The notes beneath the pieces were generated by a model. That model saw only the letters and a program-made list of their open reading frames with translations. It was not told the DNA's origin and ran no database searches. The position numbers and the translations under genes were made by a program. 64,000 bases of DNA from a virus: positions 1-64,000 of IMG/VR virus record IMGVR_UViG_3300048838_001273. The stretch is one strand, 5' to 3'. The first letter of the stretch is position 1. Each line of letters starts with the position of its first letter. Positions 8,808-58,854 of the stretch are shown here, piece by piece.

Positions 8808-9191
8808 TTATTTATATTCTACTTCAACTACTTTTCCAGATATTAATAATGGTCTCTTTAATTTTTGCCAATCAGTTAATTTGTTTGACATCATTGGCTT
8901 ACCACCATTTGCCCGATTTACTGCCAAGGTGATGTGTGGTTTAACATTTTTACTTTCAAATCCACTGACTCCAACAGCGATTACCTTATCGTCCATTGCA
9001 ATATCATCAACACTTAAACGCACTGGCATACCCAGAAATTTTTGAAATTCGGGGTCTAATTCACCCAAATTAATAGTCATGTGGTGTGCAATAATTTCAA
9101 ATTCAGATGGTATTATTGTTTTAAATCGATTTATTAGTCTCGTTCTGGATTGCTCATCCAGCACAACAGCACTATATGATACATTACTCAT
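8808..9191 (-). CDS. 2H phosphoesterase-like protein
   Basis: Two H-x-T motifs, 'HHMTINLG' and 'KPHITLAV', about 49 residues apart, define the 2H phosphoesterase superfamily (2',3'-cyclic phosphodiesterase and RNA-ligase-like proteins). I place the start at 9191 ('MSNVSYSAVVLD'), giving 127 residues. An in-frame ATG at 9227 would run into the split endonuclease gene and adds unrelated residues. The gene precedes the HAD phosphatase by 7 bases, suggesting joint processing of cyclic phosphate RNA ends. The split GIY-YIG gene just upstream may have inserted next to it. Confidence 0.78.
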   Translation of the reverse strand: MSNVSYSAVVLDEQSRTRLINRFKTIIPSEFEIIAHHMTINLGELDPEFQKFLGMPVRLSVDDIAMDDKVIAVGVSGFESKNVKPHITLAVNRANGGKPMMSNKLTDWQKLKRPLLISGKVVEVEYK

Positions 9192-9195
9192 TTGT

Positions 9196-9779
9196 TTATT
9201 TTTTATTCCATTTCCAAATATAACCACCTGCAGTCTTTCTCAAACCATTACACACTTCAGATATATGTAGAATGCCAGTTTTATTAGTTGCTTCGGTATA
9301 TGAAGAAAATTTATTTATTATTTCATTATTTTTATTCAGCATTATAACGGGTTTTGATAGCAATACACCAATTATTGGTTTTTTTTGACCTTTTAATGAT
9401 TTCGACATTACATCGGATTTCCACCTCCACGTCTCTTTATTTTTGATTCTTCACTCCATTTAGTGCCAAGTCTTGACTTTCCGACAGAGCAGATATTATA
9501 TCCAAAATCACGACAATTTGAATCGTATAATAATATGTATTTTCGCTCTAATTCCAATAATTTATTAATTTCAATATCATCATAAGATTCAATAATATTA
9601 AATGAAAAACCACTTTCTCCATACTTATTCCAAGCATTTTGTAATATTGGATTTTCATGTGTGTTTTTTTGCAATTGTTTCTTATGTGTTTTAAATCTAA
9701 TATCGAATGATTTTAAAGTACTACCAACATAAATTTTATTATTTATGTTATTTTTTATTATATATATTCCCACACACAT
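9196..9779 (-). pseudogene. GIY-YIG homing endonuclease, split by a frameshift
   Basis: Two frames together make one homing endonuclease. The first (9779-9408, 123 aa) has the GIY-YIG nuclease domain ('GIYIIKNNINNKIYVGST', then Arg in 'IRFKTHKKQL' and Glu in 'LLELERKYI') and the start of a NUMOD3 helix ('GTKWSEESKIKRR'). The second (9408-9196, 70 aa) continues with 'MSKSLKGQKKP' and a NUMOD1/IENR1-like DNA-binding end ('SSYTEATNKTGI', 'GGYIWKW'). They meet at an ATGTAATG, one reading frame apart. The NUMOD3 repeat is interrupted exactly there, so I read a frameshift, although coupled translation of two polypeptides is possible. Local A+T is higher than in its neighbours, as usual for inserted homing genes. 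Confidence 0.8.
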
Positions 9780-10118: not shown

Positions 10119-13100
10119 TTATTGCTTTAAATTAATTCTACCTTCATTTAATATATCTCTATCATTAATAATCCAATACATTTCCTGAATTAATCTTGTG
10201 TCGTGCGAGAAATCCTCGTAGTTATTCTGCAAGAATTCAAGAATTGATGCTTTACTGACATCCCGGTATGCTGGTTTACCATTTTGATTATTCCATTCAT
10301 CATATTTTTCAACAAAAAAATGAATATCTACTTCACGTCCATTAATATTCCAAGTATAGGGTTTTTGAAAATCCCCTCTATACCCCATATATTCTTTTAA
10401 ATAATTATAATAAACGTGACCGCCTTTTAAAAATTGTGGGGCATAATCAAACTTTGGTGAGTCAACAATCTCATCATTAATTTCCTTATTTATAATTCCC
10501 AGATATCCCGTTAACCAGTCTTTTCTGTCTGGACTTAATGGTGTTACTTCAATATGTTTATTCGTTTCTCTATCATACACCCACCAGTGTTCGACAAATG
10601 ATGTGCCATATTGTATCATATATCCACCAACCGGATAATATTTTTCGGGATATGTTTTTACCATATTATAAGCATTTCTTTCACATTGTCCAGCAACACC
10701 CATTGGATTATATGTTACAGAATCTCTATCAAGATATTCAAATCCCTTTGAAATTGCCTTATCAAATATTTCCTGCTTCTGTTGATTGAACTGTAATTCA
10801 GCACTTTCAGTCAATTTTGATTTACTTCCACCCGCCAAACTTAATAATTCTTCTTTATTATTCCTAATTTTACCAGCATAAATCTTCAACAGCATTGATT
10901 TTAATGTATCACCAATCTCTTTACCCTGTAGTCCCAATGCCATTAAATCATTGCCATTAACAGCTAACTCACCCAATGTTTTTGGATATTTACCTTCCAG
11001 TAATTCCTGTGCTGCGGTTTCGATTACAGTAGGTAATATTTTACTCTGCAACGATTGCTGCGAAGTCACATACATGTTGTGCGCAATAGACCTTGCCTCA
11101 ATCGCACTCACGCTTTCAGCACCATCAAATGCCATGTCAAGTGCCTTAATTTCCTTATAGGTATCAATGTCACCCTTTAAATTATTTTTATAATAGTCTG
11201 CAGGATTCGGTAATAACCTAATTAATAAGAAAATAAACTCACCCATTGTCTGAACATCATCAAAGGGACTTCTATCAATGGTTGATTGTTTAATGTCAAA
11301 CCCAAAAATCTGATTGAATAATCCAGTGTTTTTTAATAGTTGAGCACCTGTCAACATATTACCCTTTTTGACAATTTTATCAAATTCTGTCAAAATTCTT
11401 TCAGCAGGTATTTCTTTAATTCTACTTGCGTTCTCCTGAATCATTTTCATTGTAACAGGTTCAATAGTAAAACCAAAACGACTTGCGAATTGAACTGCAC
11501 GCAGCATACGCAACGGGTCATCACTAAACGCTTCCGGGTTGACTATACGAATAATTTTATCCTTTAAATCCTGTTGTCCACCATAAGGGTCAACAATATT
11601 ACCATTAACATCTTTTGCAATAGCATTAATGGTAAAATCTCTGCGTTCCAAATCTTTCTCAATTGGTAATGCATGGTCTGAACTTACTTCAAAACCCTTA
11701 TGACCACCATCTCCGGTAGGTTTTTCGGTTCTTGGAATTGCGATATCAATTTCTTCACTCGAACCCTTTGACTTGAATTTTAATATACCAAACGATTTAC
11801 CGACTGCATCAACACGACCGTATTGACTGAGAATTTGTTCCAGTTCATCCATTGAAATACCAGTGATAAGTACATCCAAATCCTTAGATTCTTTACCCAA
11901 GAATTCATCACGAACAGCACCACCAACGCTGAATATTTTACCCCCACGTTTTTCAACTTCAGGTTTAAATGGTAATTGTTCTAATGACATTATTTGTGCT
12001 TCGTTCATATTTTCTCTATTATTGTGAACTTGTTTCCATATACATCTGTGAAATTCGTCATATCCCAATTCCCCACCTAATTTAATAATTGGGTTTGATT
12101 TTATTTCCAAATTGATTTTCAACGGCAAATTTAATACTTTTGCAGCATAAAACCTATGGTGTCCGTCCTCAATATAGAAATTTTTTCCATCGAAAGACAC
12201 ATCTATCGGTTCTTCGAGACTCACCTTTTCAGCATATTGTCTGTCAGTCAATCCTTTATGCTTAATTTCATATTTAACATTTTCGAAATCATCTTTCCAT
12301 TTAATTGAAAGTTTATCCGGTGTTATAGATTTTAATGTGTCTTCATTAAATCCAAAAGCAGCCATATCCAACATGTCTGTTGGAATTCCACCGCTTCTTA
12401 AAAGTTTTTCATCTGAATCGAAACCAGCAACATAATTTTTTATTTCATCTGTTATTCGTATTTCATGACAAGCTGGTTTCTGATTTTCCGTTAAGTTTTT
12501 TTTCTTTTTAATTAAAATCTCTTTATTATCTACGGTATATTCATATCCATTTGGTATGTTTTTTATCACGTATTGTAGATACAATGAAAACCTTCTTTTA
12601 TCATCAACACTTTTAGTTTTAGTGGGTTCAATAACAACAATATCGGGATTTTTTTCAGCAAAAAACTGCCTGATTAATTTTATTATCGTACCCATTACTT
12701 TATACATTCTGCCTTTATTCACAACAGCAATATAAACCTGTGCTGGATTTTTATAATCCAAAATACCGAAATCTATTCTCCACATATTTTCTGTTTCATC
12801 TCTCACGAATTCCAGAAAATATTCATCATTGTCTTCAGTTGTAAATTTGTATATTTTAACCAATTCATCGTCTCTTTCAGTCGTGACCTGATAATCACCA
12901 ATGTTTCCTTCACCCACCTCATTTATTGATTCAGCGAAGTCTTCATAATCTTCAGGTGATTTTTCTGGTATAACAGGAACTTTACTTCCATACTTTCTAC
13001 GAACATATTCGTCAATTGTTGCTTCTCTATATCCTAACAATCCACCTATTTCTCTTGCTTCTTCAGGAGTTTTATCGCTTAGATACCCACCATGACTTTT

Positions 13101-16100
13101 AGCAATTGCGTATAGTCTTTCACCTTTTACTTTATCTCTGAAAACAACACACATCATTGAAGACCGGGATGCCATTCTTACAGGTAAAATTTGTAATCCG
13201 TGTTTTTGAATTTTACCTGCATTATCTTTATTAACCTCAATAAATGCAACATCTCTTTTACCGGACAATAGTGTTTTTAATGCGCCTTGGTCTGTATATG
13301 CTTCGCTTGCATCGATTTCTTCACTTAACATCGAATTACTCCATTGTTTAGTCAAAATTAGATAACCACCATCACCGTCTTCGCCAATAACTTCACCACT
13401 TATATCAAATTCTTCTATATCTGAAAAATCTGGTTCTTCTGAATATCTTTTAGCGTCTTCAAATGTTTTTGTTACCCAGACTATATCACGAGCATTATAC
13501 TTATCTAACTCCTTGAGCATTTCATCACTTATATGTTCGAAATCCCCAACATTTCCTAACTCATCACGCTCAAATCTCACCACATCACCAGCAGTAGTAC
13601 CACGACTATTGGTATAATTAGAATTAACACGATATCCTTTTCCAGAATATGTTTCTTCATTTAATTTCGTACTTTTTGGTAACCTATACATTAACTGCAT
13701 TGTCTGGAAATCCTTGTTCTTGCCTTTATTCATTACGAACCCCAAAGAACCATACCATGCCTTTAACTTAGCTACGCTTGCACCCCAAACATTATCAGGT
13801 GTTAATGTAATAATTAAATTATTATTATCGGCATATTCCAATATTATATTCATGGCAGCATTGGCGTAACCTTTGCCTCTGAAATTCTTGTCAATTATAA
13901 TCTTATCAATTGCAATATAGTGGTTATTCCCCTGTATGCCTCTATCTACAATACCTACACTACCAACAACCTGACCATCATTTGTTATCTGAAAAGAATC
14001 ATATCCAGAAAGTTTAGTCGGAATGTTAATTTTAACTTCCTCACTAATTGAACCAAATTTCAAATTATTAATATCGCCTTGATTACAAGCAACACTGGTA
14101 TTACCCAGACCACCTAATCTACACTTTTTTTTTACTTCTACAGATTGTGCTCCCGGCATATATGATTTCTTCCTGTCTTCATTATACATTGCAGAATTAG
14201 CACCAACATTATTTTCTATTGATGGTGATGTATCGTTTTGATTATATGCAGGAAATCCATCTTGACCCAAATCGCTGTCTGTTGAGAATTTAGAACTACC
14301 ATCTTCTGTTACTTCTATTTTCTCAAGGTTCTTTGGTTGTAAAAAACCATTTCCAAATCCCACATCAAAGAAACCCAAAGCACCGTTCTTTTTGTAACCT
14401 AAATTGCTGTGATTTAAGTAATCCATGCTTTGTATACCATATGATTTCGTTTCTTCTGCGATTCGAAGTAAACCACCAAAAAACTCAGCATCCTGTGAAT
14501 TCTTTTTAAAGTATGAATCTATTTTGTTTTTATCTACTTTTGGATTATCCCACTCACCGAGATAGTGTTCAATCACATCTGGAATACTAAGACCCAATAT
14601 TTTTTCAAATGCAAAATCTAATCTTTTATATAGTCTTTCAATGTTTGGGTCAGTATCTAACTTCTCCAAGATAATTGCATATGTTTTAGGTATTGTAGTG
14701 TTTGTCTTAGCTTCAATTTCATAGACTTTATATGGCTGCGCAATATATTTTAAAGGTATACCTATAAGCATTAAATTTTCTGCTGCCTCACTATTATCTT
14801 TAGTGATTTTTAGTACTTTATCGTTACCGATATCATAAGCAACACCAAAATTACCACCCTTCATTGGTGTGACGTTTATATTTAACTTAGCTGCAACTTG
14901 ATTGGCAATTCTGTCCGCAAGATTTCTATCATAGTCTTCAGAAATCTGACTCTCTTCTAATCTAATAATATTATCTCCAATGTTTGGTTCTTCTGCCTTA
15001 TAACCACCGATATCGAAATACGTCAATACTCCGTCTTTATATCCAAGATTTCCAATTGTTATATAATCAGTAGACCTTATATCATAATCAAGTAGTTCTT
15101 GTCTTATATTTAATATTCCAAGAAGATAATTAAATGCATATTTTCTATCTATTTCATCTACATTTGCTTTCGGGTTTTCCGTTAACACAAGTTTAGCTAT
15201 CTCCAACGCTTCATCATAATTAAATCTTGTGGCTTTTTTTATATAGATTAATATATCTTCATATGTCATGCCGTTTGGCATTATGTTGGTTATGTCATTC
15301 TGATATTTTCTTATTTTTTCAAGAGGCTTGTCTTTTATATTTTCTTGAATTATTGCATAATATGCAACATTTTTTTCGGTATCGACAACCTTATATATTG
15401 CAAATGTTTGTGCAAGATATTTAGGATTACCACGCATTAGTTTTAACGAAGAATCTGCTTCACTTATGTCTGAAGTTATTTTTATTATTCTTTCATTATC
15501 TAACTCAAACGCAAATCCATATCCACCACCACCCATGTATGTTGGTTTAGGTAATTTTAAATATTCTGCTGCACTATCCGCTAATTCTTGGGCATAGGCT
15601 CTATCGTCCAAACTAAATGGTTTAACGTTTGGGTCGGGTTTTTCTTGTTCAACAATACTATATTCATCTAAATCAATTGGGTCTCTATCATAAACTTTTT
15701 GTTGAATAAGGTATTCTTGTAATTTTAATAGATTTTTATAGAATTTTTTATTATCATCTACACGATTCAACACTTCCTTTAAGTTATTTACTGTATCGTG
15801 GAAATTATCTAAAAGATTCGGAATACCAGAAATCGGTTTTTGTGGATATTTATCCCTGTTTAAGACGAAATTTATAAATTCTTCATTAACCATTCCATCA
15901 CCGTCACCAACACCATAAGGTGTTAATGCCCACATTCCCTGACGAATAACTGTTGTATCTCCTATATCTGAAAGTATGTCATCATTACCATGTAAATTAT
16001 TGTAGATTTCATATACTCTATATTTTTCCTTACGTTGTGGATTATAATGTGTATCATATACCTCATCGTTTAATCCATAGTCAGTAAGAACAATAGTGGG

Positions 16101-16643
16101 TTGACCATTACGTAAAACTTCACCATATGAACTTGGTCTGCCGAAATCTCCGGGTGATTGATTATAGTTATGCATGAGATTTTGTAAATCTTGTGCAAAT
16201 TCATTCTCGTAAAAAAATTCAACGGTTTCAGGTTTTTGTCCAAATATTGCTCTCTTACCTTTATTCTGTTCATAATCATTTCTGAGATAATAGTACAAAT
16301 CGTTTAAACTCGGAATTCCGGTTAACTCTTTAATTCTTTTTTCAGTAACCTTTTTACCTTTTTCCGCAACAATCCAAGCACCATCATTATCAAATTCAAA
16401 TATTTTAGTTACAATATCGTGTGTATCTTGATATCTACCAACATCAGATTCTGCATCATTTTGTGCTGCACCCTTTGTGTTTTTAGCTATTTTAAACACC
16501 TTTTCGCCATCAATGTCATAGACAATTCTACCACTACCACTACCTATTCTCTGTAAATATTGGTCGGCAAATTTAATTTTACCAGCGAAAGATTTGATTT
16601 CTTCGAATTGGTCTAAGAAATTTAAAAACTCATCGTATGTCAT
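10119..16643 (-). CDS. polyvalent protein with CCA-adding enzyme domain, 2174 aa
   Basis: This is a giant multi-domain protein. In order I see: a kinase-like lobe with Gly loop and Lys (about residues 30-60, 'GSGSGRIVYDI'); two more such lobes near 370 ('GGGGYGFAFEL') and 593 ('GGNFGVAYDI'); a GNAT acetyltransferase at about 860-990 ('IIIDKNFRGKGYANAAMN'); an ART-like segment near 1045 ('DIVWVTKTFEDAKRY'); a ParB-like 'IEDGHHRFYAAKVL' near 1493; a class II CCA-adding/poly(A) polymerase-type nucleotidyltransferase at about 1552-1950 ('GGAVRDEFLGKESKDLDVLI', 'LERRDFTINAIA', 'DDPLRMLRAVQFASRFGF'); and a C-terminal domain with 'GQCERNAY' and 'EHWWVYD', perhaps a papain-like peptidase. Phage polyvalent proteins are usually packaged and injected. 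The CCA domain would mature the phage tRNAs, which lack CCA. Individual domain activities are inferred. Confidence 0.85.
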   Translation of the reverse strand: MTYDEFLNFLDQFEEIKSFAGKIKFADQYLQRIGSGSGRIVYDIDGEKVFKIAKNTKGAAQNDAESDVGRYQDTHDIVTKIFEFDNDGAWIVAEKGKKVTEKRIKELTGIPSLNDLYYYLRNDYEQNKGKRAIFGQKPETVEFFYENEFAQDLQNLMHNYNQSPGDFGRPSSYGEVLRNGQPTIVLTDYGLNDEVYDTHYNPQRKEKYRVYEIYNNLHGNDDILSDIGDTTVIRQGMWALTPYGVGDGDGMVNEEFINFVLNRDKYPQKPISGIPNLLDNFHDTVNNLKEVLNRVDDNKKFYKNLLKLQEYLIQQKVYDRDPIDLDEYSIVEQEKPDPNVKPFSLDDRAYAQELADSAAEYLKLPKPTYMGGGGYGFAFELDNERIIKITSDISEADSSLKLMRGNPKYLAQTFAIYKVVDTEKNVAYYAIIQENIKDKPLEKIRKYQNDITNIMPNGMTYEDILIYIKKATRFNYDEALEIAKLVLTENPKANVDEIDRKYAFNYLLGILNIRQELLDYDIRSTDYITIGNLGYKDGVLTYFDIGGYKAEEPNIGDNIIRLEESQISEDYDRNLADRIANQVAAKLNINVTPMKGGNFGVAYDIGNDKVLKITKDNSEAAENLMLIGIPLKYIAQPYKVYEIEAKTNTTIPKTYAIILEKLDTDPNIERLYKRLDFAFEKILGLSIPDVIEHYLGEWDNPKVDKNKIDSYFKKNSQDAEFFGGLLRIAEETKSYGIQSMDYLNHSNLGYKKNGALGFFDVGFGNGFLQPKNLEKIEVTEDGSSKFSTDSDLGQDGFPAYNQNDTSPSIENNVGANSAMYNEDRKKSYMPGAQSVEVKKKCRLGGLGNTSVACNQGDINNLKFGSISEEVKINIPTKLSGYDSFQITNDGQVVGSVGIVDRGIQGNNHYIAIDKIIIDKNFRGKGYANAAMNIILEYADNNNLIITLTPDNVWGASVAKLKAWYGSLGFVMNKGKNKDFQTMQLMYRLPKSTKLNEETYSGKGYRVNSNYTNSRGTTAGDVVRFERDELGNVGDFEHISDEMLKELDKYNARDIVWVTKTFEDAKRYSEEPDFSDIEEFDISGEVIGEDGDGGYLILTKQWSNSMLSEEIDASEAYTDQGALKTLLSGKRDVAFIEVNKDNAGKIQKHGLQILPVRMASRSSMMCVVFRDKVKGERLYAIAKSHGGYLSDKTPEEAREIGGLLGYREATIDEYVRRKYGSKVPVIPEKSPEDYEDFAESINEVGEGNIGDYQVTTERDDELVKIYKFTTEDNDEYFLEFVRDETENMWRIDFGILDYKNPAQVYIAVVNKGRMYKVMGTIIKLIRQFFAEKNPDIVVIEPTKTKSVDDKRRFSLYLQYVIKNIPNGYEYTVDNKEILIKKKKNLTENQKPACHEIRITDEIKNYVAGFDSDEKLLRSGGIPTDMLDMAAFGFNEDTLKSITPDKLSIKWKDDFENVKYEIKHKGLTDRQYAEKVSLEEPIDVSFDGKNFYIEDGHHRFYAAKVLNLPLKINLEIKSNPIIKLGGELGYDEFHRCIWKQVHNNRENMNEAQIMSLEQLPFKPEVEKRGGKIFSVGGAVRDEFLGKESKDLDVLITGISMDELEQILSQYGRVDAVGKSFGILKFKSKGSSEEIDIAIPRTEKPTGDGGHKGFEVSSDHALPIEKDLERRDFTINAIAKDVNGNIVDPYGGQQDLKDKIIRIVNPEAFSDDPLRMLRAVQFASRFGFTIEPVTMKMIQENASRIKEIPAERILTEFDKIVKKGNMLTGAQLLKNTGLFNQIFGFDIKQSTIDRSPFDDVQTMGEFIFLLIRLLPNPADYYKNNLKGDIDTYKEIKALDMAFDGAESVSAIEARSIAHNMYVTSQQSLQSKILPTVIETAAQELLEGKYPKTLGELAVNGNDLMALGLQGKEIGDTLKSMLLKIYAGKIRNNKEELLSLAGGSKSKLTESAELQFNQQKQEIFDKAISKGFEYLDRDSVTYNPMGVAGQCERNAYNMVKTYPEKYYPVGGYMIQYGTSFVEHWWVYDRETNKHIEVTPLSPDRKDWLTGYLGIINKEINDEIVDSPKFDYAPQFLKGGHVYYNYLKEYMGYRGDFQKPYTWNINGREVDIHFFVEKYDEWNNQNGKPAYRDVSKASILEFLQNNYEDFSHDTRLIQEMYWIINDRDILNEGRINLKQ

Positions 16644-18625: not shown

Positions 18626-19408
18626 TTAATCGTATTTTTTAAATGTCAAAGTAATATATTCTATAAGATGCGGAACAATATCAAGAAATTCCATTTCACT
18701 AACATCATACCAGCCATAGTTTGAATTTTCCTCATTTAATGTAATTTCTGTTGACTCACCATCAAATCTGCAAGCAAATATTGTTTCTTCACTATCTTTA
18801 TGTCTTTGAATTGTCAAAATATTTGTGACTTTATTAATTTCCAATCCAGTTTCTTCCATAATCTCACGCTTAACAGCTTCTTCCGGTTTTTCGCCCTTAT
18901 CAATCGCACCACCAACAAGTGCCCATTTATTAGGCATCCACTGGTCTTTAAAATCCGAACGCTTTAATAAAAGAATTTTATTGTCATCATTAACTATAAC
19001 AGCAACAACATTTTGTTTTAATTCCTTTTTTTTCTCACTCTCATTTAAATCTGGTGCAGCACTATATGGTTTTAGTTCTGAATTTGGATTGGTTTTCACA
19101 TCACGCCTTACCTGTTTTGACCTCCGAACACCTGCTCTATCCTGATTCAATGTGGTTTCAATGAATGCTTTCATCGGTTGACCACCAGCAAGTGCGTATT
19201 GCATCTTGTCGTCAGTTTCCGGGTTGAAATAATCAAAGAAATTCTTCAACCTCTTTAGTGCCTGATAGGTCAAATAACCGTTTTTAAGCATGAATTTGGC
19301 TCGTTTAACGCCTTCTCCATGTGGACTGGATACCAAGGTTGCCTGAATACCTCTTAGTACATCTGAAGGTATCTTATACGTTTTATTATATAGTTCTTGA
19401 TTTGCCAT
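18626..19408 (-). CDS. Nudix hydrolase with extra N-terminal domain, 260 aa
   Basis: The C-terminal half (about 130-260) is a Nudix domain. 'GGAIDKGEKPEEAVKREIME' plus 'ETGLEI' gives the full Nudix box G-x5-E-x7-R-E-x2-E-E-x-G, which binds metal and hydrolyses a nucleoside diphosphate linkage. The N-terminal 125 residues are a separate helical, basic domain ('VLRGIQATLVSSPHGEGVKR') that I do not recognise and that standard small Nudix enzymes lack. T4 relatives carry Nudix enzymes that decap RNA or clean nucleotide pools; the substrate here is unknown. The start overlaps the stop of the 208-residue gene. Confidence 0.85.
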   Translation of the reverse strand: MANQELYNKTYKIPSDVLRGIQATLVSSPHGEGVKRAKFMLKNGYLTYQALKRLKNFFDYFNPETDDKMQYALAGGQPMKAFIETTLNQDRAGVRRSKQVRRDVKTNPNSELKPYSAAPDLNESEKKKELKQNVVAVIVNDDNKILLLKRSDFKDQWMPNKWALVGGAIDKGEKPEEAVKREIMEETGLEINKVTNILTIQRHKDSEETIFACRFDGESTEITLNEENSNYGWYDVSEMEFLDIVPHLIEYITLTFKKYD

Positions 19409-23755: not shown

Positions 23756-24577
23756 TTATTTTTCTATTTCCCCTTCATCAGAACTAAAGTTGAACGATAA
23801 CTGATACGGTTCAAATTTTTTTTCTGCAACTCTCCATTTTTCAGCAAAATTTTCACCATTTTTATCAAGAATAGCATATCCGTTTCTCGTTAAATATCTC
23901 GAATGTAATAGTAAGAGGTTTTCATTATATTGTTTAGGGAACTCACCAATCTCATAATAATTACTTGCAAGTATTGTTCTACATGGAGCACATTCGCAAC
24001 AAGCCTCATAATCAATAATTTCAACATCTTTCGACCCAACTATTTTGGCATTCTCACAACTAAAAATCAAATCCAGATATTTTTTTGGCAATTCCTCTGC
24101 CATTTGCCATTTTTTCATTTTAATTATTGGAAACACCAAAGGTTTCACATTATCTAAAATAGGTGTATAGGACTTATATATGTTTTGAATGTCATCGAGA
24201 TATGAAATTGCATCATCATTCATAACATACCCAATTTGAATTTCATCGACATCCAGACTCTGTAGAAACACAACACTTAAAATCCAAATCGGTATTTGTT
24301 TAAAATGTAGACTATTCTCATTTGCTTTAACACCAACATTTAAAGAATATTGAATGTCCTTGAGATGTGAATCATATGAACACCTATCTACATCGAATTC
24401 TTCTTTAAATAATTCATGTAATTTTAAAATTCGATTTTTTTCAAGTATTGTTTTTATCTCATTATTTGTAATCTCAACATATATTGGTGTCACAATATTT
24501 CCTTCTTTTAAATTTTTCCATATAAGATATGTGGAATCAAGTCCACCGGAGAACAAAACTGCAACTTTTTTTGACAT
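23756..24577 (-). CDS. 7-cyano-7-deazaguanine synthase-like (QueC-like)
   Basis: The 273-residue protein is a PP-loop ATPase: 'VAVLFSGGLDSTYLIW' near the N-terminus matches the S-G-G-x-D-S-T loop. A Cys cluster 'FSCENAK' and 'EACCECAPC' near residue 180-200 matches the zinc site of QueC, which makes preQ0 from 7-carboxy-7-deazaguanine. In phages preQ0 is often inserted into DNA to resist restriction, or used for queuosine in tRNA. The gene lies between helicase and DNA polymerase, which favours DNA modification. No other preQ0 pathway gene is in this window. It could also be another PP-loop enzyme acting on a similar base. Confidence 0.78.
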   Translation of the reverse strand: MSKKVAVLFSGGLDSTYLIWKNLKEGNIVTPIYVEITNNEIKTILEKNRILKLHELFKEEFDVDRCSYDSHLKDIQYSLNVGVKANENSLHFKQIPIWILSVVFLQSLDVDEIQIGYVMNDDAISYLDDIQNIYKSYTPILDNVKPLVFPIIKMKKWQMAEELPKKYLDLIFSCENAKIVGSKDVEIIDYEACCECAPCRTILASNYYEIGEFPKQYNENLLLLHSRYLTRNGYAILDKNGENFAEKWRVAEKKFEPYQLSFNFSSDEGEIEK

Positions 24578-24586
24578 AAAGCAAGA

Positions 24587-27406
24587 CTATTTTCTATGTT
24601 TTTCCTTAATTTTATTTATTACATCACTAAGTACTGATTCACTGACGTTTGAAGTATAATCTTCGTTATCAATAACCTTTACGATTTCTTTTCTTTTACT
24701 CTCAATCGAAGAAAACACATAATCATCAATGGTATCAGGGAAAATCAACACGTAAATATTAACAGCAGATTTTTGTCCAATTCTATGTAAACGGTCACTA
24801 ACTTGGTCATATTCGCCCACACTATATGGTAGTGTCATTATAAATAACTTACTTGCTGCTGTCAGGGTAAGACCATAATTACAGGTTTGAATTGAACCCA
24901 AAAATCCTTTAATTGTGCTATTAATGTCCTGAAATATTTTAACAATTTCTGCACGTTCTTCAACGCTTTGGTCGCCAGTGTGTAAGGCAGCAACATCTCC
25001 AAGTCGTTCCTTTAATTCATATAGGCTTTCCTTGAAGAAATCTACAACCACCACCTTTTCTCCGGTTTCAAATATGTTTTCAATTAATTCAATAACATGC
25101 TTTATCTTCAATTGTGCCAAGTATTGTCTTAAACGAATCATGGTAGTCAATGGATTACCAGTGGGATGAATTACAAATTCATTTGCAACACCTGCTTCAA
25201 TTTCATTATAAATTTTAGCTTCCTCATCAGTCATTTCCAATATAATACGCTGATATGTTTTATCTGGAAGGTCGGTAAGTACTTCGAATTTTCTTTTTCT
25301 ATGTGTATATGGCGCAATTTTATGATAAAGTTCTTCAAGTTTTTGTTCCATACTATCGGTAATATAACCCCAACCACCATACACATCATATGTCATTCCG
25401 CAATAATATTCGTAAAAATATTTCTTTGTTGCGAAGTCAACGGGCGATATTTGATTTAAAACCGTGTATAATTCGTATGCTCTATTCGGTGCAGGAGTAC
25501 CGGATAAGAAAATCTTACTTTCTTTATTGTTCTTAAAAATATCTTTTTTAAAAGTAGATTTGAAGTTTTTAAATGTATTTGCCTTGGTGTTCTTTAATTT
25601 CTGACTTTCATCACAAATAACAGCATCAATCTCACCGATTTTTAACTTTTTCCATTTAGTTAGGAATTTTTCTTTACTTGAGGGATTAAAGAAGTCATAA
25701 TTAAGTATTACATACTTTGCATCTTCAATACCACAAGTATTTTTCTTCCAGTTTACAATATGTGCATTACTATTTGTAAACTTCTGTACCTCATTATAAA
25801 AGTTAAATTTAAGTGAGTTAGGTGTTACTACCACTACTTTCTCAAAACCATTCATTTCAACGTAAAGAATGCTTGAAAGTGTATTGTGTGTTAAAATACA
25901 ATTATTAGTACAATATAAATGGTCATCACTATCAATTAAAATACATTGTGCTTCCATTTTTCCAACATATTTAACATCAACAATTGCTCTGTTCGGTGGA
26001 TATTTTGTTGTAGCAACAAAGGTTTTAATTTTTCTTTCAAGTTTAAATGGAATAAATTGTGCTGGTAATTTTATATGTAATCTATAATATAATCTATTTT
26101 CACCTTTATATTTAACCCATTTTTCTGTTAATCTGCCAATACCACCTAACGATTGTACTATAAATTGCACATCATTAATTAATTGTTTTGATGCCAAGGT
26201 TAGTTCAACTATTGAATCTTTTCTTGAATGTCCGTCTGTATCTAAGATACCTTGTAGTATTTCAAGTCTTTGGTGTATTGATGAAAACTTATAATCATTT
26301 GGGATATATTTTGTATGTGAATTACTACCTTTCAATCCATATTTCTTCAATTCTTGATTTATGAGATTATTTTTACCATCGGCAGTTAAATAATAATCTT
26401 TTACTGACTTACCATTAATTACCATATTATGATTTTCAGGTAACCGCAATGACATTTCATTAATTAATTCTACATCCATAGAAGAAAAACCAATACCATT
26501 CAAAACAGTCAGAGACCCATCACCCAATAAACAACCTAAAATATATGGGTCGATTTTCAACTCTCTTTCTTCAAATTCTATTGGCTTAACAATTGGTATA
26601 TACCACTTATTATTACCATTCTCGAATTGTAAACCTTCATCCATAATTTCTCTGAGAGTTTTCGTCATAAATGGGTTTCCACGCCAATTACGAATATAAG
26701 TATTCACATTCCAAAGATGCTCATCACATGAACGTGCAGTAACACCATCATTAAATGTGATTTCATAAATATCTTTTAATCCCTGTGGATATACACCTAA
26801 AACCTTCTTAGGCTTACCATCGCTACCAATCACGAAATCATCAATTTTGATATCACCCATTCTAACCAAACCATTTGGTGTAACCAATTTAGAATCAAGT
26901 GGTTCGGCTTTACCCAATCCCATTTCATGGGAAATCAGCGTGTTACGGGTAACGTTCATGAACATTCCGGCAACAATTTGATGTGGATAGAGTTTTACAT
27001 CTTCTCTTAATAAAGCATGACATTTTTCAGAGTACTGAACATATGTTTCTTCGAGTTCTTTTTTATATTGTACCCAATGTTCTTTCTTTATGTTAAGGTC
27101 TGCAATAAATTTGCGTTTTTCTTCTTCCCTGACCTCAATTTTCCTGATTTGCTGAATAAAAACTTTACGACTGTCTTCATTGCCGAAATCAAAATGAATT
27201 TTATTTGAACCCTTGTATTTCTTGATTATTGCAAATAAGGAAGGTGTAGTAACTTCCCATGCCATAGCTGCAGGACTCCATTTACGGGTTTCATCCGGGA
27301 GTTCTTTAATGCGTGCAATTAACTGGTCATTGGGTGAAAAACGAACGTAATACGCTAATCTTCTTGGTATTCTTTCGCAATGCACTACAAAAATTGGTTC
27401 AAGCAT
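24587..27406 (-). CDS. SNF2-type DNA helicase interrupted by an intein
   Basis: The 939-residue precursor contains a SNF2/superfamily 2 helicase split by an intein at residues 167-508. After removal the helicase is 597 residues. Walker A is 'SHEMGLGK' joined to 'TLSS', motif II is 'AVICDESQKL', motif III 'FLSGTPAPNRAYEL', and motif VI 'SDRLHRIGQKSAV' with the arginine fingers. The N-terminal 130 residues are a separate domain common to SMARCAL1/HepA-like phage helicases. Such proteins remodel forks and drive branch migration. A host-type promoter precedes it and QueC follows after 9 bases. The intein sits in the ATP-binding loop, so the enzyme is inactive until splicing. Confidence 0.92.
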   Translation of the reverse strand: MLEPIFVVHCERIPRRLAYYVRFSPNDQLIARIKELPDETRKWSPAAMAWEVTTPSLFAIIKKYKGSNKIHFDFGNEDSRKVFIQQIRKIEVREEEKRKFIADLNIKKEHWVQYKKELEETYVQYSEKCHALLREDVKLYPHQIVAGMFMNVTRNTLISHEMGLGKAEPLDSKLVTPNGLVRMGDIKIDDFVIGSDGKPKKVLGVYPQGLKDIYEITFNDGVTARSCDEHLWNVNTYIRNWRGNPFMTKTLREIMDEGLQFENGNNKWYIPIVKPIEFEERELKIDPYILGCLLGDGSLTVLNGIGFSSMDVELINEMSLRLPENHNMVINGKSVKDYYLTADGKNNLINQELKKYGLKGSNSHTKYIPNDYKFSSIHQRLEILQGILDTDGHSRKDSIVELTLASKQLINDVQFIVQSLGGIGRLTEKWVKYKGENRLYYRLHIKLPAQFIPFKLERKIKTFVATTKYPPNRAIVDVKYVGKMEAQCILIDSDDHLYCTNNCILTHNTLSSILYVEMNGFEKVVVVTPNSLKFNFYNEVQKFTNSNAHIVNWKKNTCGIEDAKYVILNYDFFNPSSKEKFLTKWKKLKIGEIDAVICDESQKLKNTKANTFKNFKSTFKKDIFKNNKESKIFLSGTPAPNRAYELYTVLNQISPVDFATKKYFYEYYCGMTYDVYGGWGYITDSMEQKLEELYHKIAPYTHRKRKFEVLTDLPDKTYQRIILEMTDEEAKIYNEIEAGVANEFVIHPTGNPLTTMIRLRQYLAQLKIKHVIELIENIFETGEKVVVVDFFKESLYELKERLGDVAALHTGDQSVEERAEIVKIFQDINSTIKGFLGSIQTCNYGLTLTAASKLFIMTLPYSVGEYDQVSDRLHRIGQKSAVNIYVLIFPDTIDDYVFSSIESKRKEIVKVIDNEDYTSNVSESVLSDVINKIKEKHRK
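25883..26908 (-). other. class 3-like intein with LAGLIDADG endonuclease
   Basis: The insert encodes 342 residues, starting with Ala ('AEPLDSKLVTPNG') and ending 'CILTHN' before an extein Thr. It lacks the usual Cys1/Ser1. Instead it has the three marks of class 3 inteins: Trp after the block B His ('CDEHLW'), Cys in block F ('MEAQCILIDSDDH'), and Thr at +1. Two LAGLIDADG motifs ('ILGCLLGDGSL' and 'LQGILDTDGHS') mark a homing endonuclease. It lies exactly in the helicase Walker A, between Lys and Thr of G-K-T. Confidence 0.9.
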
Positions 27407-58776: not shown

Positions 58777-58781
58777 TTTTG

Positions 58782-58854
58782 TAGCGGGAGAGGGATTCGA
58801 ACCCCCGACCTCTTGGTTATGAGCCAAGCGAGATACCACTTCTACCATCCCGCA
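58782..58854 (-). tRNA. tRNA with CAU anticodon
   Basis: Anticodon arm CTTGG-CTCATAA-CCAAG gives CAU. T-arm is GGGGG-TTCGAAT-CCCTC and the acceptor pairs GCGGGA with TCCCGC. Position 1 appears to be T opposite T72, an unpaired end reminiscent of initiator tRNAs, but the three G-C pairs of initiator anticodon stems are absent. The D-stem is weak. It could be Met, initiator or Ile2 (lysidine). No CCA is encoded, so a CCA-adding enzyme is needed; the polyvalent protein has one. Confidence 0.85.

What the first reader, a model, noticed from the sequence alone, without database searches (positions are those of the whole stretch)
11000..11990. CCA-adding enzyme fused inside a 2174-residue polyvalent protein
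A full CCA-adding signature (GGAVRD, D-x-D in 'DLDVLI', 'RRDFTINAIA', 'RMLRAVQFASRFGF') lies at about residues 1552-1950 of one polypeptide with three kinase-like lobes, a GNAT domain, ParB-like and Cys/His domains. If injected with DNA, the enzyme could act on host or phage tRNA ends immediately on entry.
Basis: partly seen in the sequence, partly recalled or inferred. Interest (0 to 1): 0.72.

Follow-up and report, generated by a model that had tools for sequence, protein, structure and literature searches.

The report
Phage cargo polyprotein with CCA-adding enzyme
A giant T4-like phage encodes a complete tRNA-tail-building (CCA-adding) enzyme inside one very long protein whose modules are joined by what look like cutting sites of the phage's own capsid-maturation protease, so it probably packs a string of ready-made enzymes into the virion, cuts them apart there and injects them with its DNA.

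Summary
The intact 2174-aa ORF (10119-16643, minus strand) contains a complete class II CCA-adding enzyme at residues ~1556-1938. Pfam head, neck and tail match, the catalytic residues are invariant in 36 relatives, and the AlphaFold model fits the whole of 1MIV (E 1.4e-19). The fusion is not an artefact: 45 non-redundant related viral proteins carry the same modules (kinase-like lobes, a Cys tag, GNAT, CCA enzyme, 2H/Acb1 phosphoesterase) in changing order.

The new element is the joints. They carry [LIM][NTS]E, the site type cut by the T4 prohead protease gp21. This was the top of 408 tripeptide patterns at homology-block ends (z=10). It occurs in 72 of 131 short joints against 13 expected, and is mostly missing where the CCA enzyme sits at a protein end. 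A T4-type protease (Peptidase_S77) lies beside the gp23-type capsid gene in 11 of the 12 relatives with that gene; in the twelfth the contig ends nearby.

Most likely this is a capsid-cargo polyprotein, cut by the prohead protease into about 11 proteins, one a 398-aa CCA enzyme, then injected. Cleavage and injection are inferred; no virion data exist.

The parts
10119..16643 (-). 2174-aa cargo polyprotein (polyvalent protein)
   Evidence: Open frame; modules recur in 45 non-redundant relatives; only window ORF with p below 0.05 for [LIM][NTS]E (12 vs 5.1 expected, p 0.003)
15648..16643 (-). residues 1-332: kinase-like lobe 1, ending IVE332|Q
   Evidence: pLDDT mostly >85 except a loop at 202-249, dip at 329-333; Foldseek kinase/APH matches to the whole model; phrog_4301
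14937..15647 (-). residues 333-569: kinase-like lobe 2, ending ISE569|D
   Evidence: pLDDT >90, dip at 565-569; 35-57% identity to the module in relatives
14304..14936 (-). residues 570-780: kinase-like lobe 3, ending VTE780|D
   Evidence: relatives at 46-70%
14040..14303 (-). residues 781-868: linker and Cys tag MPGAQSVEVKKKCRLGGLGNTSVACNQGDINNL, ending ISE868|E
   Evidence: Tag found in 42 viral loci, repeated within one protein (L080); mostly low confidence in the model
13656..14039 (-). residues 869-996: GNAT acetyltransferase, ending LNE996|E
   Evidence: Pfam PF00583 5e-7; Foldseek AtaT/KacT-type GNAT toxins among matches
13320..13655 (-). residues 997-1108: unassigned module, ending LSE1108|E
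   Evidence: No Pfam match; 66-77% identical module in relatives
12918..13319 (-). residues 1109-1242: unassigned module D1109, ending INE1242|V
   Evidence: Well-folded in model; 16 copies among the 45 proteins
12486..12917 (-). residues 1243-1386: unassigned, possibly GNAT-like, ending LTE1386|N
   Evidence: DUF6934 0.04, weak GNAT fold matches to model B
12000..12485 (-). residues 1387-1548: ParB-like module with DGHHR, ending MNE1548|A
   Evidence: phrog_1033 0.006; 67% identical module in L085
10806..11999 (-). residues 1549-1946: class II CCA-adding enzyme, predicted mature product of 398 aa, bracketed by MNE1548|A and LTE1946|S
   Evidence: joints
10143..10805 (-). residues 1947-2167: unassigned Cys/His module, then conserved C-terminal module, ending LNE2167|G
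   Evidence: C-terminal module: 16 copies among the 45 proteins, followed in several by LxE and a 2H module; Cys/His part without Pfam match
8808..9227 (-). free-standing 2H phosphoesterase that is a polyprotein module in relatives
   Evidence: PF08302 tRNA ligase CPDase 4.6e-5; 55-67% identity to polyprotein modules of L053, L023, L022, L080, L072
8231..8800 (-). HAD-type phosphatase, polynucleotide kinase/phosphatase-like, near the polyprotein in relatives
   Evidence: phrog_415 1.8e-5; PF10307 RNA-repair HAD 0.034, below cut-off; found in relatives' loci
58781..58854 (-). phage tRNA-Met(CAT) without encoded 3' CCA (reads ...CCCGCTACAAAAAG)

Best explanation
The ORF is a capsid-cargo polyprotein. 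It is made late, enters the prohead, and is cut there by the T4-type prohead protease (gp21/Peptidase_S77 family) after [LIM]-[NTSK]-E sites placed between modules. This releases about 11 separate proteins, including a free 398-aa CCA-adding enzyme. The products are injected with the DNA, and the CCA enzyme restores or completes tRNA 3' CCA ends from the first moment of infection: phage tRNA-Met, which lacks an encoded CCA, and host tRNAs damaged by defence nucleases. It would act beside 2H phosphoesterase and HAD phosphatase RNA-end-healing proteins. Shown here: the enzyme's identity, the recurrence and shuffling of modules, and the enrichment of the motif at joints. Inferred: late expression, cleavage, packaging, injection and the biological substrate.
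For: Enzyme: families, PDB; GG..RD, D-x-D, third Asp, RRD...N and D..LR residues invariant in 36 copies; whole-enzyme match to 1MIV, TM 0.70. Recurrence. Joints: [LIMV][NST]E is the top of 408 tripeptide class patterns at homology-block ends, z=10.2; 72/131 short joints against 13.4 expected from in-domain stretches, while K and G variants stay at background and D rises less than twofold; 29 of 34 distinct joint types; CCA C-side motif 21/27 when internal against 1/9 at protein or contig ends. AlphaFold confidence dips at 329-333, 565-569, 1223-1248, 1514-1551, 1940-1952 and 2164-2174, coinciding with sites. Protease: PF03420 within a few kb of gp23-type MCP PF07068 in 11 of 12 relatives with an MCP. 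T4 gp21 cuts after ITE-6 and LTE-619 in the injected protein Alt (PMC5694885). The scaffold-like gene beside the MCP is enriched in the same motif in 3 of 5 relatives. N-terminus MTYxEF..NFL[PTK]E in many relatives; T4 internal proteins carry a 10-aa capsid-targeting propeptide whose processing depends on residues 8 and 10 (PMC9026906). Phage tRNA without CCA.
Against: No proteomics. The window's own record (78.9 kb fragment) holds neither MCP nor PF03420, so the protease is inferred from relatives. The window protein's own N-terminus lacks a clear LxE. Some joints lack the motif (kin3-tag 4/11, kin2-kin3 10/17). Joint sequences of relatives are not fully independent. [LIM][NTS]N is also enriched (24 vs 7.5). 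Some relatives carry the CCA enzyme as a stand-alone gene (L025, L026, and the 636-kb phage LR756504), so fusion is not required for function. Late expression is assumed.
Confidence: 0.66

Rival explanations
1. Uncut polyvalent protein: the 2174-aa chain is packaged and injected whole, or cut by an embedded peptidase, and the domains work tethered, as proposed for polyvalent proteins in general. LxE is only a favoured linker or recombination seam.
For: Polyvalent proteins with kinases, GNATs and ParB-like domains are described as injected multi-domain proteins (PMC5512222). Modules are plainly shuffled at the joints. The N variant of the motif is also enriched at joints.
Against: No recognised peptidase domain in the window protein. 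The joint motif is a specific protease-type tripeptide; K and G variants stay at background. It tends to disappear when the CCA module stands at a protein end. A matching protease family is present in relatives.
Confidence: 0.17
2. Not a virion protein: the polyprotein is made and used inside the infected cell (early or middle gene), cut there or not, and the CCA enzyme serves only tRNA maturation for phage and host during replication.
For: Stand-alone CCA enzymes are known in jumbo phages and read as RNA repair or translation genes (PMC7824862, PMC7162821). Phage tRNA-Met lacks CCA. Neighbouring RNA-repair genes.
Against: Prohead-protease-type sites would have no evident purpose outside the prohead; a capsid-targeting-like N-terminus is seen in many relatives.
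Confidence: 0.12
3. The nucleotidyltransferase is not CCA-adding: a poly(A) polymerase or another template-independent RNA nucleotidyltransferase, for example one that modifies tRNA ends as a toxin.
For: The class II family includes bacterial poly(A) polymerases; Pfam names the head 'PolyA_pol'.
Against: Best structural and sequence matches are CCA-adding enzymes over the full length with head, neck, body and tail. The region after motif A reads VGKSFGILKF, which does not fit the poly(A)-polymerase signature (own knowledge of the family, not tested by a tool).
Confidence: 0.05

Closest known systems
Polyvalent proteins (Iyer et al. 2017, PMC5512222)
   Same: Large multi-domain phage proteins with kinase, GNAT and ParB-like modules, predicted to be injected; module shuffling.
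   Different: The passages read describe only minimal Pol-beta NTases, no CCA-adding enzyme, and propose processing by embedded zincins or C-terminal assemblin-like peptidases. Here the processing signal is a T4 prohead-protease-type site at most joints, presumably cut in trans.
T4 internal head proteins and Alt (gp21-processed, injected)
   Same: LxE/IxE cleavage sites (ITE-6, LTE-619 in Alt), N-terminal capsid-targeting propeptide, T4-type protease and capsid in relatives.
   Different: T4 cargo are single proteins trimmed at their ends; here up to about a dozen modules are strung in one chain with a site between neighbours.
Class II CCA-adding enzymes, including stand-alone phage ones (PHROG 2244)
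   Same: Catalytic motifs, full head-neck-body-tail architecture.
   Different: Embedded in a polyprotein rather than a free gene; in named phage records it is annotated as a free gene.
Acb1 anti-CBASS phosphodiesterase (PF23474)
   Same: Module next to the CCA enzyme in relatives, above the Pfam cut-off in six of the ten modules scanned.
   Different: Here a polyprotein module at the same kind of joints, so possibly virion-delivered; not present in the window's own polyprotein.

Membership tests
CCA-adding enzyme (class II tRNA nucleotidyltransferase) | Head-domain motifs GG..RD, D-x-D, RRD..N and the (E/D)D..R template motif | tested here: met
   Invariant in 36 copies apart from D/E variation at the first position of the template motif
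CCA-adding enzyme (class II tRNA nucleotidyltransferase) | Head, neck, body and tail domains of ~390 aa | tested here: met
   Pfam head, RNA-binding and tail matches; whole-length structural match to 1MIV
CCA-adding enzyme (class II tRNA nucleotidyltransferase) | Adds C-C-A to tRNA in vitro | not testable with these tools
   Needs biochemistry
Polyvalent protein | Several biochemically unrelated domains in one phage polypeptide | tested here: met
Polyvalent protein | Delivered into the host with the DNA | not testable with these tools
   No proteomics; indirect support only
Substrate of a T4-type prohead protease | [LI]xE sites at proposed cut points | tested here: met
Substrate of a T4-type prohead protease | Cognate protease in the same phage | tested here: inconclusive
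   Present in 11 relatives beside the MCP; absent from the window's 78.9-kb fragment, which also lacks the MCP
Substrate of a T4-type prohead protease | Cleavage observed in virions | not testable with these tools
   Needs mass spectrometry
T4-like capsid-targeted internal protein | Short N-terminal targeting propeptide ending in LxE | tested here: inconclusive
   MTYxEF..NFL[PTK]E| in many relatives, no clear LxE in the window copy

The most novel reading that the evidence does not exclude
A clade of T4-like jumbo phages uses true maturation-protease polyproteins, in the manner of some eukaryotic viruses, to load the capsid with shuffled sets of about 5-12 ready-made enzymes (kinases, acetyltransferases, CCA-adding enzyme, anti-CBASS Acb1, RNA-end phosphodiesterases), so that tRNA repair and counter-defence begin at DNA entry.
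Probability: 0.55. Interest if true: 0.87.

Novelty: new variant of a known kind. Interest (0 to 1): 0.74.

Why it matters
It would turn the loose idea of injected polyvalent proteins into a concrete, testable mechanism: one motif predicts where the maturation protease cuts, which products enter the cell and where to look for new anti-defence enzymes. It also suggests that a tRNA-repair enzyme, and in relatives an anti-CBASS enzyme, may be delivered preformed rather than made after infection, which bears on how phages survive tRNA-cutting and nucleotide-signalling defences in the first minutes. The joint motif gives a simple way to find and parse such cargo in unannotated jumbo-phage genomes.

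Tried and rejected
Assembly or frameshift artefact: rejected (intact frame; fusion recurs in distinct contigs). Embedded self-cleaving peptidase: no Pfam peptidase in the window protein. LxE as generic linker chemistry: K and G variants not enriched, other window proteins not enriched, although D and N variants rise mildly. De novo dipeptide scan was dominated by conserved motifs of homologous modules and was replaced by the class-based tripeptide scan. First alignment of the C-terminal half (A2) misplaced short fragments and was not used. Bacterial genome scan with the CCA domain found no close relative, so the host was not inferred. Pfam gave no kinase match for the lobes; the kinase label rests on the fold only. 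The 'ART' label used as a module name in scripts has no tool support and is dropped. CC-only or A-only enzyme: not separable by sequence here.

Full report
What is there. The minus-strand ORF 10119-16643 encodes 2174 residues without interruption. Residues ~1556-1938 are a class II CCA-adding enzyme: Pfam PolyA_pol 3.7e-23, RNA-binding neck 2.7e-15 and tail 3.6e-5; PHROG 2244 2.4e-67; CCA-adding enzyme 1MIV 4e-29 by sequence. An AlphaFold model of residues 1109-2174 matches 1MIV over the whole enzyme, E 1.4e-19, TM 0.70 by target length; the 46 best matches are all enzymes of the CCA/poly(A) type. In an alignment of 36 phage copies the catalytic GG..RD, D-x-D, third Asp, RRD..N and D.LR residues do not vary, which speaks for a working enzyme.

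The rest of the protein. Residues 1-780 form three lobes modelled at high confidence, apart from a loop at 202-249 in lobe 1. They match protein kinases and APH enzymes weakly, E 4e-4 and worse, with no Pfam kinase match. A GNAT domain follows. Its fold neighbours include AtaT and KacT toxins. The ParB-like call is weak. Several modules remain unassigned.

The fusion recurs. A scan of viral contigs with the CCA domain returned 26 loci at 51-100% identity. In most the CCA enzyme lies inside a 529-2021-aa protein; in L025-L027 it stands alone. A scan with the small Cys tag (residues ~811-866) returned 42 loci. Among 45 non-redundant proteins the same modules appear in many orders: 36 CCA modules, 37 tags, 14 Acb1/LigT-type 2H modules and 12 of a second 2H type. 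Acb1 (PF23474) passes Pfam's cut-off in six of ten modules scanned. In the window the second 2H phosphoesterase is a separate gene at 8808-9227. The best-scoring relative in a deposited phage record, a 636-kb uncultured phage, has a stand-alone enzyme.

The joints. By eye the window protein shows IVE332, ISE569, VTE780, ISE868, LNE996, LSE1108, INE1242, LTE1386, MNE1548, LTE1946 and LNE2167 between modules or at the end. To test this without choosing the motif, I took ends of homology blocks among the 45 proteins and ranked 408 tripeptide class patterns; [LIMV][NST]E came first, 197 sites near block ends against 108 expected, z=10.2. In 131 short joints between recognised modules [LIM][NTS]E occurs in 72, against 13.4 in same-length stretches inside domains; the D, K and G variants give 22 vs 12.9, 7 vs 13.8 and 11 vs 9.1, and the N variant 24 vs 7.5. 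Counting joint types rather than copies, 29 of 34 have [LIMV][NTSK]E in at least half their copies. The CCA enzyme has the motif on its C side in 21 of 27 internal copies but in 1 of 9 at protein or contig ends. Model confidence drops at several of these sites. No other window protein was clearly enriched, but a second one in the same record, a 968-aa protein just outside the window, is (9 vs 2.6).

Which protease. T4 gp21 cuts after Glu in this context, for example ITE-6 and LTE-619 of the injected protein Alt (PMC5694885). Peptidase_S77 (the gp21 family) was found in 4 of 16 and 7 of 11 records tested, each time within a few kb of a gp23-type capsid gene. One further record with the capsid gene (G009) ends about 1.5 kb beyond it. 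Records in which no capsid gene was found, the window's included, also gave no protease match; they are probably fragments. The scaffold-like gene beside the capsid gene is enriched in the same motif in three of five relatives. Many relatives' polyproteins begin MTYxEF..NFL[PTK]E|, which recalls the 10-residue T4 capsid-targeting propeptide (PMC9026906); the window copy lacks a clear site there.

Mechanism proposed. Shown: enzyme identity, recurrence, joint motif. Inferred: the polyprotein enters the prohead, the prohead protease cuts it into about 11 proteins, they are injected, and the 398-aa CCA enzyme completes or repairs tRNA 3' ends. The phage's tRNA-Met has no encoded CCA, and RNA-end-healing genes lie beside the polyprotein, so both maturation and repair are plausible roles.

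Comparison. Polyvalent proteins are a published class (PMC5512222), but the passages read describe only minimal Pol-beta NTases in them and processing by embedded or assemblin-like peptidases. Jumbo-phage CCA enzymes are described among RNA-repair and translation genes, not as polyvalent-protein modules. I found no paper in the library joining CCA enzymes to polyvalent proteins, or prohead proteases to such polyproteins; most subscription journals are not held. Hence: a new variant of a known kind.

Limits. No virion data; relatedness among proteins inflates the motif statistics, although the count by joint type reduces this; the window phage's own protease is not seen.

Noticed in passing
own record G000:C1 ~67130-70036, minus strand (locus L089:4130-7036), just outside the window: A 968-aa protein with 9 [LIM][NTS]E sites (2.6 expected) and an N-terminus MKIFKDKGSKDRLFEMVEKVNKVKLNE|, similar to that of the adjacent 148-aa zincin-like peptidase (MKVFHPYGSKARLFEMMGRVNRLNE|): probably a second cargo polyprotein and a shared sorting tag.
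   Followed up: partly
L015, L020, L021, L022, L079, L081 (modules in the polyproteins with the CCA enzyme): Anti-CBASS Acb1-type 2H phosphoesterase as a polyprotein module, above Pfam's cut-off: possible virion-delivered counter-defence.
   Followed up: partly
24587-27406, minus strand: SNF2-type helicase interrupted by a LAGLIDADG/Hint element, most likely an intein.
   Followed up: no
G018:C1:63143-64738, G019:C1:214260-215930, G025:C1:29167-30717: Peptidase_S77 prohead protease split by a ~1-kb in-frame insert within one long open frame (598-651 aa), possibly an intein in the protease itself.
   Followed up: no
18626-19408, minus strand: Nudix hydrolase with an N-terminal ~120-aa region ending in LNE123|S before the Nudix domain; conserved in relatives' loci.
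   Followed up: no
window ~14046-14213, minus strand (polyprotein residues ~811-866): Small Cys tag MPGAQSVEV..KCRLGGLGNTS.ACNQGDINNL, the commonest module, repeated in one protein (L080); function unknown, possibly a sorting or binding element.
   Followed up: partly
9408-9779, minus strand: GIY-YIG-type homing endonuclease gene just downstream of the polyprotein gene, which may help module exchange.
   Followed up: no
23756-24577, minus strand: QueC-like queuosine/7-deazaguanine gene next to the DNA polymerase gene.
   Followed up: no
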